Shown: one piece after another, positions 8,375 through 30,881 of the stretch
Layout: each line of letters begins with the position of its first letter
Position numbering within the stretch: the stretch's first letter is position 1
Origin: Gammaproteobacteria bacterium
Lineage (GTDB): Bacteria; Gemmatimonadota; Gemmatimonadetes; Longimicrobiales; Gaopeijiaceae
Length of the DNA stretch: 33,329 bases
Direction: 5' to 3'
NCBI GenBank assembly: GCA_009843625.1
Contig: VYDD01000146.1
Coordinates: forward strand, 1-33,329
Position numbers and translations under genes: made by a program
The notes under the pieces: generated by a model
Seen by the model: the letters and a program-made list of their open reading frames with translations, nothing else
What the model was told of the DNA's origin: nothing
The model's database searches: none

Positions 8375-8456
8375 AACATGTCATCTTAGGATATCATCTT
8401 CCCTATCTCGTTGTGATAAGGTATCTTGATCTGTCACACAACGTGTCAGATAAGGT
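8375..8456. promoter_or_regulatory. AT-rich leader with repeated elements upstream of fic (candidate promoter/operator)
   Basis: Imperfect 16-mers AACATGTCATCTTAGG (8375-8390) and AACGTGTCAGATAAGG (8440-8455), plus CCCTATCT (8401-8408, reverse complement AGATAGGG), TGATAAGGT (8414-8422) and AGATAAGGT (8448-8456). Confidence 0.4.
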
Positions 8457-8464
8457 GCAAAACA

Positions 8465-9661
8465 ATGGACTGGTCTCGGTTTAGCTTCGACTACCGTCTC
8501 AATCTATCGGACTTCCAGCCCTTGCTCATCCAGATCGAAGGACGCAAGGAGGCAGCGATGAACTTGCTGCTGCCGCCAGAGTGGAAGGAAGGGCTTGATC
8601 TCCTCAACCGCATCAGAACGATCCATGGGTCCACGGCTCTTGAGGGTAATCCGCTTTCGGAAACCCAGGTTGGCCAGTTTCTGCAAGGCAAGATCGGGCT
8701 CGATCCCATGAGCAGGGACATGCGGCAGATTCAGAACGCCGATGCGGCCCAGGAATGGGTCCGGCGCCGGTTCGGACCCGGCAAGGCCCCGATCAGGCTT
8801 GAGGATGTCCTGCGGATGCACGAACTGATGACAAGGCTGTCCGACGAAACCAACAACGTTCCGGGTCACCTTCGCTCTCATGATGTTCAGGTCGGCACCC
8901 CGGAACTGGGGGGCATCCATGTGGGGGCACCCTACCCGGATCTCCCCTCACTCATGCCCGATTTCGTTTGCTTCGTGAACTCAGCCCGGCTCAAGCGTGA
9001 GCACGCCGTTGTCAGGGCCCTGCTCGCCCACTTCTTCCTCGTTACGATCCACCCGTTTGGGGATGGAAACGGTCGGGTCTCTCGTCTCGTCGAAGCGGCC
9101 ATCCTCTATGAGGGAGGCTACAACATCCACGGGTTCTACGGGCTCTCGAACTACTTCTACCGAAACGGGGACGATTACAAGAAGCGGCTGCAGGAATGCC
9201 GCCGAGTCCAGCCGTTCGACATGGTGCCCTTCGTAGTCTTCGGGCTGCATGGCTTCGAGGCCGAGTTGGAAGGGATCAACAACTTCATCAAGACGAAGAT
9301 GAACCGCCTGGTGTACCGCGACAGGATCACCAACGCGCTAGGTCAGCGAGTGAGCAAGCGCCGTCACTTGCTCAATGCCCGGGAGTACCAGCTTCTCCGC
9401 TTCCTTCTTGAGGAAACCGAGCCGCAAGATCCGTTCTCCGAGGTTCCGTCGGAACGCATTCGTCTGGATGACCTGGTGAACTCACCCTACGTGAGAAGCA
9501 CCTATCGCGACGTAACCAACCGGACGTTCCGGCGGGAACTTACGCGGTTGGCTGAATTGGGGTTTATCGTGTTCGACCATCTGCCCGAGTCGGGCGAGTA
9601 CACCGTCCAGATCGACTTCGGAGCGATCGAGAGGGACTTCGACGAATTCGGAAGCCGCTAA
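8465..9661 (+). CDS. Fic family protein (class II architecture, C-terminal winged-helix-like region)
   Basis: Catalytic HPFGDGNGRVSR; N-terminal inhibitory-helix motif STALEGN matching (S/T)xxxE(G/N); start MDWSRFSFDYRLNLSDFQPLLIQIEGRKEAA. Confidence 0.93.
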   Translation: MDWSRFSFDYRLNLSDFQPLLIQIEGRKEAAMNLLLPPEWKEGLDLLNRIRTIHGSTALEGNPLSETQVGQFLQGKIGLDPMSRDMRQIQNADAAQEWVRRRFGPGKAPIRLEDVLRMHELMTRLSDETNNVPGHLRSHDVQVGTPELGGIHVGAPYPDLPSLMPDFVCFVNSARLKREHAVVRALLAHFFLVTIHPFGDGNGRVSRLVEAAILYEGGYNIHGFYGLSNYFYRNGDDYKKRLQECRRVQPFDMVPFVVFGLHGFEAELEGINNFIKTKMNRLVYRDRITNALGQRVSKRRHLLNAREYQLLRFLLEETEPQDPFSEVPSERIRLDDLVNSPYVRSTYRDVTNRTFRRELTRLAELGFIVFDHLPESGEYTVQIDFGAIERDFDEFGSR

Positions 9662-25270: not shown

Positions 25271-25663
25271 ATGCGGGCGATGCTGGTGACGGCGGTGACC
25301 GCGCTCGCCACCGCCTGCGCCGCGCGCGCCGGGGAGGGCAACCCGGCCATCACGCCCGGCCTCGAGGATCAGATCGAGATCCGGATCATCAACAACAACT
25401 TCAGCGATGCGCGGATGTACGCGGTGCACCCGCGCGGGCGCGAGTACATCGGCATGCTCACCGGGAAGACCGAGGCCAACTACACCCTGGACTGGGACAT
25501 CTCGCAGACGCTCTCGATCGAGATCTCGCTGCTCGCGGGCGGAACCTGCACGACGGAAGAACTGATCGTCGATCCCGGCGAGGCCCTCTTCCTCAGCATC
25601 GATTCGACGCTGGCCACGATGACGAACTGCCGGCCGACCGCGACGGGGATCGGCGGGGGTTAG
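25271..25663 (+). CDS. Small secreted/lipoprotein-like protein of unknown function
   Basis: [66 protein letters not shown]...; signal sequence with Cys. Upstream in-frame ATGs are also possible. Confidence 0.65.
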
Positions 25664-27096
25664 TTGCCGGTTGGCGTCAGGCCGAGTTCCTTGAGGTGAT
25701 CACGGCCCACTTGGGTTAGCCGAAACCGCTGGTTGACGCTGCTTGGCTTCTCGGGAATCGTCATCTCGATCCAGCCCTGCTCAAGGCAGGGCTTGAGATA
25801 CCGCTTACGCAGGTTTCCGAGGTTCCGGAGCCCCAACGCGGTCAAGATGTCCTGGCGGCTCATGTCGCCCGAGATGGACAGCAGCAGTTTCTCTCGAGGT
25901 GTGGCGAGGGAAGCAGTCTCAGCCACCTCCGGTAGGTGCTCGCCGGCAGCGGTTGGTGGACGGTCATCCGGTCCATCGCTGGCCGCGTCCTCCCGTTGTG
26001 CTTTGGTCGGCTGATCCGGCCGATCCTCCCGTACTTCCGAGGGCTCGGCAAGGGAAAGGTCGTATTGCCCGGATGCGGTTGGTGGTACCGTCGTGGGGGA
26101 CTGATCTTCGAAGGGCTCACCTCGGAGCACTTGTGCCAATTCCTCTGGTGTCCTGGGGTTCGGCCATGGCTTCGCACCGCGGTTAAGCAGGCCGTTGAGG
26201 CCCTCGGAGGGCTCGCCGCCGGAGCGAACGTAAACCGACACGAACCTCAGCTTGTCCAGTTGGTCGGTTGCTCCTGCCCAGGTACCGCCATGCCCATGGT
26301 CCGAGTTCACCACAAGGGCGGCGTCCGACAGCGCGTAGATGAGCTTGTTGCGCTGCATGGCATGGCCCACCACGAAGCGGGCTGCGGGATCGTATGGGCA
26401 AACAAGAACCAGTTGTCCCCCCATCAAAGCCCCGCGGTTTCCCCGGTTCAGGGCCGCCCGTTCGAGACCGTTGGCCAGAACACCCACGGACTGGCCACCG
26501 GCTTCCAATGCGCCCCTCATCGCGGCCTGGTCGACTCCGCGCGCGCCGCCGGAGATGATCGTCGTGTTCGCTTCGGCGCTGAGCCTGCCAACGTCTTCCG
26601 TGTACTCGATGAGGTCTTCCTTGACCTTCCTGGAACCCACAACCGCCAGCCCGCCACCGTCCAGAATCGTGCGATCCCCGCACCCGTAGAGGACCGGCGG
26701 GGCGTTGCCTCGCATCCGGGCCTTCAGCTTTCGCGGATAGTCCGGATCAGCCCGGGTAACCACCCACAGGGCGCGCGCGCCCCATCGCTCGACCGCCTGC
26801 GCCAGGAGGAATCCGCGGCCCAGAAGCCGGTGAATTCGTTCGGCGTCCAGGCTGGCGAGGGATTCCCGCACCGTTTCCCGAGCGTCACTACCGAGCAAAT
26901 CGGCTGGTTCGCGGTGGATGGTCCGAAGCCGCGTGGCGAAATCGCGATACTCGGCGGTGCTCAGTGGACGCAGCTTGGCCGCACCCACGCTCCCTCGCTG
27001 GGTCCGCGGTCTCGGAGGGCGTCTCCGCCGGCCCGCGAGCAACGGCGCGGTCAACAGCAGAATCGCCTGCGCGTTCGGGCTGAGATCGGCGTTCAT
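25660..27096 (-). CDS. Divergent DprA/SMF (SLOG superfamily) protein with C-terminal winged-helix domain
   Basis: [96 protein letters not shown]...[19 protein letters not shown]-term [57 protein letters not shown]. Start MNADLSPN overlaps the helicase stop (TGATG). Confidence 0.88.
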
Positions 27097-29175
27097 CAGC
27101 TCCCTCGCAGTGATGAGAGGGCGAGCGGCCACACCTCGCCGCTTCCGTGGCGGCGCAAGAGCCATGCGGCCACGGTGAAGGTCCAGCGCGAACCGACGAC
27201 ATCGTCCACCAGAAGAACGGGCCTAGGCAGTGGCTCCTCGTGCACTTCCAGCACACCATCGAGGTTTAGTGCCTGCTGCAGGCTGTTGGCCATCGACTTT
27301 TGCTCTTCGGGCTCACCGGTCTGTTGGAGGACTGCGCGAAACGGCAAGCGCAGGGCACGTGCAAGCCGTCGGGCAAAGTCTGGAACCAGATCCGGGTGCC
27401 GGCGCGAGGGTATGCAGGTGATCCACTCCGGTGCAGATTGCGGGCTCCATCGCTGCAGCAGCCGGACGCAGGCGTCAACAAGTTCATCGTCGAATCTTCC
27501 TGCGTGTTTTCCCTGCCGGACCAACTCCCCCCATCCCCCATCGCGCCACACGGAGAGCGCCCTCCCTTCGTTCGCACGAAGCTCATCGGGAATCTTCCCC
27601 TTGATCTCGTATTGGGGCAATCCGCCAGCTGGCCACATCTTGCGCGGCTCGATCACCAGAGCCCGGCGGCGGAGGAATGCCACGGCCTCTCGCACGAGAA
27701 CAGGGGCAACGCTCGTGGACAGTGACGGCAGATCCGGCGGTTCAAACGCTTCAGGGTCACCGTCGAGCGCTCGAACCAGGAATTCCATGTGTCCAGACCG
27801 GAGTGCGACGTATTCCTGCATCTCACGCTGCTCCTCTCGTCGCAACTCGGTCAATCGCTCGGCGCGGTCCCAGAAGGCCTGTCCCAGGGTTGCCGCCGTA
27901 AGCTGCCACTTCGAACCCTGCTTGACGACTGGCGGTGGTGACTCAAGAGACAGCAGTTTCATCGTCTGCTTGATACGGCCACCGCTGATGTTCAGGCTAC
28001 GCCGCAGATCTGTTGGCGTTGCCCCCTGCGGTGACTCTTCGAGCGTGTCGATCACTCGTTGTACCTGATTGCGGGTAGGGAATGCGGTGTCGATGAAGTA
28101 GTCCGTGATGTCCTTCTCCTCGTCTCCGCTCAGCAGCACTCCGTAGGCGGCCTCCAGAGCCCGCCCGGCGCGGCCTACCTGCTGGTAGTAGAACACGACG
28201 GACCCCGGCGTCTGGTAGTGGATCACGAAACCGAGGTCGGGTTTGTCGAATCCCATGCCTAATGCGACGGTCGCAACCAGGGCCTTGACCTGGTTCTTGA
28301 GCAACGCGCGTTCCAACTCCTCCTTTTCCTCTGTCTCCTTCTTCGCCGTATAGGCGTGTACGTCCAGACCCTGTGATTGGAGCCACTCCGCCACCAGCTC
28401 CGCATCGCGGACGGTCAGCGTGTAGATGATTCCGTGACCTGCAAGTTGCGGGACCGTCCCGGCGAGCCAGGCCAGCCGCTCCTCCTGACGACGTAGCCGG
28501 ATCGTTTGCAGAAAGAGGGACGGCCGCGACAAGCTGCCTTGGTGGACCCTCAAATCGGGTCCGAGGACCTCCCGGAGGTCCTGCATTACGCGGTGATTCG
28601 CCGTGGCTGTCGTTGCGAGGAGTCTCAGGTTTCGGGGGAGCGTCCGGGCCATGCGTTCGATCAGTCGGTAGTCGGGCCGGAAATCGTGCCCCCAGTCGGA
28701 GATGCAGTGCGCCTCGTCAATGACGAGCAACGCAATGCGCTCGGCCATGTGGGAGAGGACATCGTCACGAAAGTGCTCGTTGGCCAATCGCTCCGGGGCG
28801 ACCAGCAGGAGGTCCACCTCGTCACGGACCAGGAGTTCTTCCACCTCGGGCCATTCGTTCATGTTGGCCGAGGTTATCCACTCGGCACGGACTCCCATCC
28901 GCTTCGCGGCGGAAATCTGGTTACGCATCAAGGCGAGCAAGGGAGAGATCAAGAGGGTCGGTCCAGCCCCCATTTCCCGCAGCAGCTTGGTCGCGATGAA
29001 GTAGACGAAGCTCTTGCCCCAACCCGTCTTCTGCACAACGAGGAGTCGGCCGTCGCCCCCAAACCACATGGCGGACTGCTTCTTCCTGTCCAGGGCGGAA
29101 TCCGGCATCAGGAAGACCAGTACCAATTCTGAGTAGTCCAAGAGCACGGCTGCCATCGTATCTTGATCGCCACAT
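27096..29175 (-). CDS. RecQ-like DNA helicase fused to a C-terminal ComF-like phosphoribosyltransferase domain; apparent frameshift near 29056-29060
   Basis: Walker [43 protein letters not shown]-term [25 protein letters not shown]...[24 protein letters not shown]. The N-terminal Q-motif ([40 protein letters not shown]) is in a different frame from the rest. Confidence 0.88.
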
Positions 29176-29264
29176 GTCAGACTCTCTTGCAGCGGACGTG
29201 GACCCCAAGAACGCGAGTGTGCTCAAACAGGATCGCCGGCGGACTCGCTGTCCGCGTCGAGTCG

Positions 29265-30881
29265 CTAGCCCAGCGGTGGGGCGCTTTCTGGCGGGCGCCG
29301 GTGCCCCGTGGCCTGCTCGAAAGCATAGCCGAAGCGAATCAGCATCCCTTCAGCAAAGGGGCGGCCCAGGAACTCGATGCCGATAGGCAGGCCGTCCGGG
29401 GTGAAGCCGGCGGGAACGGTGAGCGCGGGCCAGCCGGTCAGCGGGCTGAGCAGGCGGTTGTCGCCAAGGCCGTAGTCGTCGGCCGGGGAGGGATTGGTCT
29501 CGACGTCCGGGGCGATGAGGGACGGCGGGTGGTCAAAGGTGGTGTGCACCAGCGCGTCGAGGTCGTGGTCGGCCATCACCTGGTAGATATCCTGGCGGAG
29601 TTGGTCGCGGGCCAGCAGGTAAGCCAGGTAGCCGGGGTCGCGGGTGGTCTTGCCGAGTGAGTTCGCCAGCCCCGTCGCCCGCCAGGGCGTCACGCGCCCG
29701 CTGAGCAGGATGGAGCGCAGGGTGGTGTAGGGCGGGTTGTCGAGTTCCGCCAGGTAGGCGTTGGTGGCGGCTTCGGTCTCGTGGGGGTTCAGGGAGTAGA
29801 TGGCGTTGACCCCGTCGACCCCGGGGATCGCCACGTTGTCCACCACTTCGGCGCCCAGCGTGCGCAGCTGTTCGACGGCCGCATCGACGATCGCGCGAGC
29901 CTGCCGGTATCCTTCCGAATCCGTGTCCAGCGCCTGGTCCATGGGGTCGCGGATGACGCCGATGCGGGCCCCGTCGAGCCCATCCTCGGATAGCCCCTCG
30001 CTGTAGGAGTCGGGGATCTGGCCGGCCGACATCGCGGTCACCGGGTCGTTGGGGTCGTACCCGGCGATGGCGTCCAGCAGGATCGCCGCGTCCATCACAG
30101 TGCGCGTCATCGGCCCCATGGTGTCGGTGGTGGGGTTGGCGGGCATCATGCCGTAGCGGCTGACCAGTTGGAGGGTGGGCCTGAGCCCGACCAGCGCATG
30201 CACCGCCGACGGGCCGCGGATGGAGCCGCCGGTGTCCTCACCGATGCCGATCAGGCCCAGGTTCGCGGCCACGCCCGCGCCCGTGCCGCCGGAAGAGCCG
30301 CTCGGATTGCGCCGCGGGTCGTACGGATTGCGGATGAAGCCGAACCCCGAGCCCACGTAGCGCGATGCGAACTCACCCATGTTGGTCTTGGCGATGATGA
30401 GCGCGCCCGCGTCCTCCATGCGGGTGACGATGGTGGCGTCCCGGGAGGACACGAAGTCCGCGAAGAGCGCCGATCCGTAGGTGGTGGGCATGTCGCGGGT
30501 CTCGACCTGGTCCTTGAGGAGGACCGGGATGCAGTGCAGCGGCCCGCTGAGTCCGCCGCCGGCGAGGGCCTGGTCCAGGCGGGCGGCCTCGTCGAGGGCG
30601 GCCGGGTTCAGGTTGGCAATGGTGTTGAGTTGCGGTCCCTGCTGGTCGTAGGCCTCGATACGGTCCAGGTAGCCCTGCACCAACTGCACGCAGGTCAGCT
30701 CACCGGAGAGGAAGGCGTCGTGCACCTCGGCAATGGTCGCCTCCTCGATTTCGAAGTCCTGGGCGAACGCGGCGCCCGGCGCGGCGAGGAGCAGACCGGC
30801 GGCCAGGAAGAGCCCCATCGCGCGCGAGGCGCGAGAGCGGGAGCGAGTTGTCCATTTCACAGGAAACGATCCGGGATTCAT
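29265..30881 (-). CDS. Amidase signature family enzyme, secreted
   Basis: LHCIPVLLKDQVETRDMPTTYGSALF; NPSGSSGGTGAGVAANLGLIGIGEDTGGSIRGPSAVHALVGLRPT. Start at 30881 (MNPGSFPVKW) or 30818 (MGLFLAAGLLLAAPGAAFA). Confidence 0.92.
   Translation of the reverse strand: MNPGSFPVKWTTRSRSRASRAMGLFLAAGLLLAAPGAAFAQDFEIEEATIAEVHDAFLSGELTCVQLVQGYLDRIEAYDQQGPQLNTIANLNPAALDEAARLDQALAGGGLSGPLHCIPVLLKDQVETRDMPTTYGSALFADFVSSRDATIVTRMEDAGALIIAKTNMGEFASRYVGSGFGFIRNPYDPRRNPSGSSGGTGAGVAANLGLIGIGEDTGGSIRGPSAVHALVGLRPTLQLVSRYGMMPANPTTDTMGPMTRTVMDAAILLDAIAGYDPNDPVTAMSAGQIPDSYSEGLSEDGLDGARIGVIRDPMDQALDTDSEGYRQARAIVDAAVEQLRTLGAEVVDNVAIPGVDGVNAIYSLNPHETEAATNAYLAELDNPPYTTLRSILLSGRVTPWRATGLANSLGKTTRDPGYLAYLLARDQLRQDIYQVMADHDLDALVHTTFDHPPSLIAPDVETNPSPADDYGLGDNRLLSPLTGWPALTVPAGFTPDGLPIGIEFLGRPFAEGMLIRFGYAFEQATGHRRPPESAPPLG

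What the first reader, a model, noticed from the sequence alone, without database searches (positions are those of the whole stretch)
25660..29175. RecQ-ComF(PRTase) fusion helicase coupled to a divergent DprA: a compact competence-like or defence module
Sequence: two translationally coupled minus-strand genes (TGATG overlap at 27094-27098). The first has all main SF2/RecQ motifs plus a C-terminal segment with the PRPP-loop-like [13 protein letters not shown] of type I PRTases (ComF-like). The second is a DprA/SMF Rossmann protein with altered canonical positions ([23 protein letters not shown]) and an added C-terminal winged helix. Knowledge: in natural transformation, ComFA (helicase), ComFC (PRTase) and DprA interact physically, and SLOG/DprA-like proteins also recur in predicted nucleotide-centred conflict systems. 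Inference: the module condenses the helicase/PRTase/DprA trio into two polypeptides and may process incoming ssDNA or act in phage/plasmid defence. It sits as a visibly lower-GC islet between housekeeping genes. I cannot tell from sequence whether this architecture is already catalogued.
Basis: partly seen in the sequence, partly recalled or inferred. Interest (0 to 1): 0.82.

Follow-up and report, generated by a model that had tools for sequence, protein, structure and literature searches.

The report
RecQ-PRTase toxin with DprA-like antitoxin
Two overlapping genes encode a known bacterial self-poisoning defence pair (a helicase fused to a nucleotide-handling toxin domain, plus a DprA-like partner that restrains it), here a copy in an uncultured bacterium whose toxin gene frame is broken near its start; it is an ordinary member of an already catalogued family.

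Summary
The minus strand carries a RecQ-type helicase fused to a ComF-like type I PRTase (27096-29156), overlapping by TGATG a DprA-like gene with a C-terminal winged helix (25660-27096). The architecture is already catalogued: protein 1 matches PADLOC PsyrT almost end to end (852 bits, E 8e-257), protein 2 matches PsyrA (383 bits). It was studied in E. coli as RqlH/RqlI: the PRTase is toxic and RqlI binds and restrains RqlH (PMC4670107). The pair recurs as an operon across more than 20 phyla, on plasmids and putative viral contigs, sometimes nested inside type I R-M or BREX loci. In the window's genus it is a ~3.6-kb presence/absence block. Canonical dprA and comFC lie elsewhere in the genome, so this is not the housekeeping competence set. 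The toxin frame is broken upstream of Walker A in this copy; congeners 99% identical are open. Small new points: the window belongs to a PsyrT clade without the RecQ zinc cysteines; its lineage has Gly where RqlH has the toxicity-critical D663; PsyrA's C-terminal HTH varies (Fic-like_C here). Verdict: new member of a known kind.

The parts
27096..29156 (-). psyrT-like toxin gene as read (686 aa): RecQ-type helicase + C-terminal PRTase
   Evidence: PADLOC PsyrT PDLC03928 852 bits, residues 35-683 on profile 37-684/689
28050..29048 (-). RecQ-type helicase core (residues 37-369)
   Evidence: PF00270 and PF00271; TIGR01389 match 38-369; motifs near invariant in 90 homologues; Foldseek hits to RecQ/BLM structures
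27111..27566 (-). ComF-like type I PRTase domain (about residues 531-682)
   Evidence: profile of the family's C-termini scores the genome's own ComFC best of 8 PRTases, 37.6 bits; strand/helix order in the AlphaFold2 model
27180..27218 (-). PRPP loop [13 protein letters not shown] (residues 647-659)
   Evidence: D651 90/90, D652 88/90, W658 90/90; G655 where 76/90 have D
29055..29175 (-). out-of-frame N-terminal remnant of psyrT (MWRSRYDG...FRPGQEEAV, motif 0) and the frame break at its 3' end
   Evidence: ORF 28921-29226 in another frame; one-base length difference from four congeners; congener frames open
27094..27098 (-). TGATG overlap of toxin stop and antitoxin start
25660..27096 (-). 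psyrA-like antitoxin gene (478 aa): N-terminal helices, DprA domain, disordered linker, winged helix
   Evidence: PADLOC PsyrA PDLC03927 383 bits; AlphaFold2 model pLDDT 84.9
26170..26775 (-). DprA/SLOG Rossmann domain
   Evidence: PF02481; Foldseek best hits DprA 3uqz and ShosA 8zva
25714..25890 (-). C-terminal winged helix, PF21247 Fic-like_C
   Evidence: E 2e-18; other HTH types or none recognised in nine non-congener homologues
25671..29253 (.). presence/absence block carrying psyrTA, missing in congener G099
   Evidence: flanks contiguous in L067

Best explanation
This is a PsyrTA/RqlHI locus, a two-gene toxin-antitoxin-like anti-phage module. PsyrT is a RecQ-type helicase whose C-terminal ComF-like PRTase is the toxic part. 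The DprA-like PsyrA binds PsyrT and, with the helicase domain, keeps the PRTase in check. Most likely, phage infection or DNA damage (a phage product, or abnormal DNA sensed by the helicase and DprA parts) relieves the restraint; the PRTase then consumes PRPP or alters nucleobases/nucleotides, causing DNA damage and growth arrest that aborts infection. Shown here: membership, architecture, operon conservation, mobility, defence neighbourhoods of relatives. Shown in relatives (literature): PRTase-dependent toxicity, physical interaction, antitoxin effect. Inferred: trigger, chemistry, and that this lineage's pair works the same way. As read, this copy's toxin lacks motif 0 and is probably impaired unless the break is an assembly error.
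For: PsyrT 852 bits and PsyrA 383 bits; RqlHI genetics in E. coli (PMC4670107); anti-T7/lambda activity of a DprA+PRTase pair (PMC9122126); ShosT chemistry as reported in a review (PMC12593503); dprA-like gene downstream in 72 of 80 loci, spacing -8 to +12 nt in 71 of 74; presence/absence block in the genus; relatives nested in type I R-M and BREX loci and beside CBASS-like genes; invariant PRPP aspartates.
Against: The window copy has no defence neighbour and a broken toxin frame. Its lineage has Gly at the RqlH D663 position, whose Ala substitution abolishes toxicity in E. coli. No assay exists for this lineage; the exact chemistry and trigger of PsyrTA were not found in the papers held.
Confidence: 0.85

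Rival explanations
1. Competence/ssDNA-processing module: a condensed ComFA/ComFC/DprA trio that handles incoming ssDNA.
For: PRTase is closest to ComFC among the genome's PRTases; PsyrA has a DprA fold; Russell & Mulvey discuss the same parallel.
Against: Canonical dprA and comFC are elsewhere in the genome; helicase is RecQ-type, not ComFA; patchy presence (5 of 11 in the genus; about 10 of 301 in the phylum); studied relatives are toxic.
Confidence: 0.05
2. DNA repair/genome-integrity accessory: the helicase and DprA parts act in recombination, and toxicity in E. coli is a by-product of unbalanced expression.
For: RqlH is an active helicase in M. smegmatis, where the PRTase is dispensable for that activity, and RqlH often occurs without RqlI; solo copies L091 and L146.
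Against: PRPP aspartates are invariant across phyla; relatives nested in R-M and BREX loci and on mobile elements.
Confidence: 0.08
3. The window copy is a decaying, non-functional remnant of psyrTA.
For: Frame break in this copy; a different break between residues 453/454 in congener G078.
Against: PsyrT is otherwise 99% identical to open congener copies; both breaks are one-base differences in fragmented draft assemblies and could be assembly errors. Not exclusive with the best explanation.
Confidence: 0.35

Closest known systems
PsyrTA (Sberro et al. 2013; PADLOC PsyrT PDLC03928 and PsyrA PDLC03927)
   Same: Full-length match of both proteins, same gene order, overlapping genes.
   Different: Toxin N-terminus out of frame in this copy; C-terminal winged helix is Fic-like_C; no RecQ zinc cysteines.
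RqlH/RqlI of E. coli F11 (PMC4670107)
   Same: RecQ-PRTase upstream of DprA-HTH gene, operon; Walker A, DEAH and PRPP loop conserved.
   Different: Gly in place of D663 equivalent; an E. coli relative (L042) and the rest of its clade keep four zinc cysteines that the window's clade lacks.
ShosTA (PRTase toxin + DprA-like antitoxin)
   Same: PRTase effector with DprA-like partner; PsyrA fold matches ShosA 8zva; ShosA model hits at 80 bits.
   Different: ShosT has no RecQ helicase as described in the papers read; sequence scores far below PsyrTA.
DpdF of the Dpd 7-deazaguanine DNA system
   Same: Helicase and, for some models, C-terminal similarity (PDLC02864 287 bits; PDLC02866 on residues 492-681).
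   Different: Below the NCBIfam DpdF cut-off (143 against 550 bits); no other Dpd genes seen in the window (by inspection).
Natural transformation proteins ComFA/ComFC/DprA
   Same: PRTase resembles ComFC; DprA fold.
   Different: RecQ-type rather than ComFA helicase; canonical dprA and comFC elsewhere in the genome.

Membership tests
PsyrTA / RqlHI | RecQ-type helicase fused to C-terminal PRTase, matching the PsyrT profile over its length | tested here: met
   852 bits, profile 37-684 of 689; only the first ~36 positions missing because of the frame break
PsyrTA / RqlHI | DprA-like partner matching PsyrA | tested here: met
   383 bits, profile 1-336 of 398
PsyrTA / RqlHI | Toxin gene upstream of and adjoining/overlapping the antitoxin gene | tested here: met
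   TGATG overlap; same in relatives
PsyrTA / RqlHI | PRPP-binding aspartates intact | tested here: met
   D651 and D652 present
PsyrTA / RqlHI | D663 of RqlH (Ala change abolishes toxicity) | tested here: not met
   Gly at the equivalent position 655, as in 9 of 90 relatives; D in 76 of 90. Equivalence inferred from the DIVD motif, and it is not a conserved position of type I PRTases in general; not treated as a defining feature of the family
PsyrTA / RqlHI | Toxicity of T relieved by A; phage protection | not testable with these tools
   needs expression and phage assays
ShosTA | Antitoxin closest to ShosA; stand-alone PRTase toxin | tested here: not met
   ShosA 80 bits against PsyrA 383 bits; PRTase fused to helicase
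DpdF | Passes DpdF equivalog cut-off (NF041063) | tested here: not met
   143.5 bits against 550
Housekeeping RecQ | Passes RecQ equivalog cut-off (TIGR01389) | tested here: not met
   260 bits against 640; other RecQ-like genes on C157 and C345
Canonical DprA (competence) | Passes DprA equivalog cut-off (TIGR00732) and is the genome's only dprA | tested here: not met
   91.6 bits against 191; canonical dprA sequence on C160

The most novel reading that the evidence does not exclude
The PsyrT clade without RecQ zinc cysteines (36 of 90 sampled sequences from about 16 named phyla, the window included) is a functionally distinct subfamily: its helicase lost the zinc module, the window's lineage has Gly at the RqlH D663 position, and its PRTase chemistry or its restraint by PsyrA differs from RqlHI.
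Probability: 0.2. Interest if true: 0.4.

Novelty: new member of a known kind. Interest (0 to 1): 0.22.

Why it matters
The comparative set gathered here (90 PsyrT sequences, two clades separated by the zinc module, an invariant PRPP loop with an unusual Trp, a variable C-terminal HTH on PsyrA, nesting inside R-M and BREX loci) gives concrete residues and natural variants for testing how PsyrTA senses infection and what its PRTase does, for which I found no settled answer in the papers held.

Tried and rejected
Competence module: rejected because canonical dprA and comFC are present elsewhere and the helicase is RecQ-type. DpdF and ShosTA membership: tested, much lower scores. Conserved or programmed frameshift: rejected, four congener copies are open at that point. 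Domain gift from the Fic gene at 8426-9661 to PsyrA's C-terminus: no similarity and no PF21247 in that Fic protein. Defence-neighbour enrichment: a pooled scan of 96 neighbours gave only scattered R-M and BrxL hits and had no control, so no enrichment statistic is claimed; only named examples are used. PDB sequence search with the PRTase part gave nothing significant, and the whole-model fold search listed only RecQ helicases, so the PRTase fold rests on profile similarity to ComFC and model topology. Sberro 2013 was not held; the primary ShosTA paper of 2025 was not found.

Full report
What is there. On the minus strand, 27096-29156 encodes a 686-aa RecQ-like helicase with a C-terminal PRTase, and 25660-27096 a 478-aa DprA-like protein; stop and start share an A in TGATG at 27094-27098.

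Identity. PADLOC's PsyrT model matches protein 1 from residue 35 to 683 with 852 bits, and PsyrA matches protein 2 with 383 bits. RecQ (260 bits against a cut-off of 640), DpdF and canonical DprA models fall below their equivalog cut-offs. The same architecture was studied as RqlH/RqlI in E. coli F11 (PMC4670107): rqlH lies upstream of rqlI, often overlapping; RqlH toxicity needs the PRTase (DIVD663EVME and D663A abolish it); helicase mutants K49A and D148A raise SOS induction and filamentation and lower viable counts; RqlI interacts with RqlH, and its first 320 residues, without the HTH, suffice. That paper also raised the ComF/DprA competence parallel. A P2-phage-borne DprA+PRTase pair protects against T7 and lambda, and its authors link it to shosTA, psyrTA and rqlHI (PMC9122126). 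A 2025 review reports ShosT as a PRTase/pyrophosphatase that disturbs purine metabolism, with T7 Gp0.7 as trigger (PMC12593503).

Is the C-terminus a ComF-type PRTase? A profile of 90 PsyrT C-termini was scored against the genome's eight other PRTases found by Pfam; its own ComFC (contig C70, with cysteine pairs before the PRTase and VLLVDDVLTTGAT) came first at 37.6 bits, the next at 28.4. The AlphaFold2 model (mean pLDDT 89) has alternating strands and helices there, with the PRPP loop at the end of strand 647-654. Family-wide the loop reads VDD-x-V-D-S-[RG]-W-T: D651 90/90, D652 88/90, W658 90/90. The conserved Trp departs from the TTGAT type of loop seen in the genome's own ComFC. Position 655, by motif the RqlH D663, is D in 76/90 but G in 9, including the window and its congeners.

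Is the pair conserved? A scan of 85,488 species genomes, limited to the best 80 loci, found relatives at 47-89% identity; the sampled loci carry 23 phylum labels. 72 of 80 have the dprA-like gene downstream; L091 and L146 lack it with about 6 kb of room, and the other six are broken, cut short or have little room. 71 of 74 measured spacings lie between -8 and +12 nt (I picked the start codon nearest the toxin stop, which favours short spacings). PsyrA's C-terminal HTH varies: Fic-like_C in the window and congener L068, other or unrecognised types in the nine other homologues tested. The fold of PsyrA matches DprA (3uqz) and ShosA (8zva).

Clade. The four cysteines of the RecQ zinc module are present in 54 of 90 sequences and absent in 36, the window included. 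On the tree the absent state is one clade with 100% SH-aLRT and one change of state. The cysteine columns were left in the tree, a minor circularity.

Mobility and neighbourhood. 5 of 11 genus genomes carry psyrT. In the four congeners examined it sits at the same site between a hypothetical gene/S9 peptidase and an amidase. Congener G099 has the same flanks joined with window 25671-29253 missing. In a draw of 301 genomes of the phylum about 10 carry full-length PsyrT. Elsewhere relatives sit inside hsdM-hsdS-[psyrTA]-hsdR in E. coli, Vibrio furnissii and Providencia, inside a BREX locus on an Acinetobacter plasmid, and, on a putative viral contig, between a WYL regulator and hsdM next to a SMODS/patatin pair; Solimonas has the same WYL-psyrTA-hsdM order. 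The window copy itself has no defence neighbour nearby.

Not the housekeeping set. Contig C160 (cut by the contig end) encodes canonical DprA sequence (FPRRNRLIAGLS), C70 ComFC, C157 and C345 other RecQ-like proteins; C153 holds a third DprA-like protein.

Frame break. The original N-terminus with motif 0 is in another frame, and this copy differs by one base in length from four congener copies at about 29055-29070. Congeners G045 and G226, 99% identical, have an open frame. Intact copies exist; whether this one is mutated or misassembled cannot be told. G078 has a different break between residues 453 and 454.

Mechanism. Best reading: the PRTase is the toxic effector, restrained by PsyrA and the helicase part, and released on phage attack or DNA damage to disturb PRPP/nucleotide pools and damage DNA, aborting infection. 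Trigger and chemistry are inferred from RqlHI and ShosTA, not shown here. Novelty is low: a new member of a known kind, with small lineage-specific differences.

Noticed in passing
window 27000-29500 against L047/L048 and L049: psyrT is 99-100% identical in DNA to G045/G226 while the flanks are 94-97%, yet only 77-82% identical to G086 at 28500-29500 where flanks are 92-98%: looks like allele replacement by recombination at one site.
   Followed up: partly
L055 (congener G078), near 9277: A second congener toxin gene is split by a one-base frame change between residues 453 and 454; two of five genus copies have broken toxin frames.
   Followed up: partly
L042 1583-11662; L118; L141: psyrTA nested inside a type I R-M operon (hsdM-hsdS-psyrT-psyrA-hsdR) in E. 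coli, Vibrio furnissii and Providencia heimbachae; the E. coli form is in 53 of 5426 complete genomes.
   Followed up: partly
L046 1-11974: psyrTA inside a BREX locus (brxC-pglX-[psyrT-psyrA]-DUF262-pglZ) on an Acinetobacter plasmid.
   Followed up: no
L148 1851-11174; L150 219-5855; L075 4986-11971: On putative viral contigs and in Solimonas a WYL regulator stands directly upstream of psyrT; L148 also has SMODS and patatin genes (CBASS-like) and hsdM; L150 has a serine recombinase and RepB/ParB genes.
   Followed up: partly
PsyrT residues 455-473 (window about 27740-27794): Four zinc cysteines of RecQ absent in a single clade of 36/90 PsyrT sequences.
   Followed up: yes
L045 4872-6953: PsyrT relative on a haloarchaeal plasmid without a DprA-like gene beside it; long branch, Gly at position 655.
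   Followed up: no
window 8426-9661 (+): A Fic-family gene of clearly lower GC (58%) than the window mean (67%), possibly another acquired gene.
   Followed up: no
G000:C153:5194-5778 (L002): A third DprA/SLOG-like protein in the same genome, unlike both canonical DprA and PsyrA.
   Followed up: no
L114 and L115: Identical PsyrT in MAGs labelled Kiritimatiellae and Verrucomicrobia, probably one lineage under two names.
   Followed up: no
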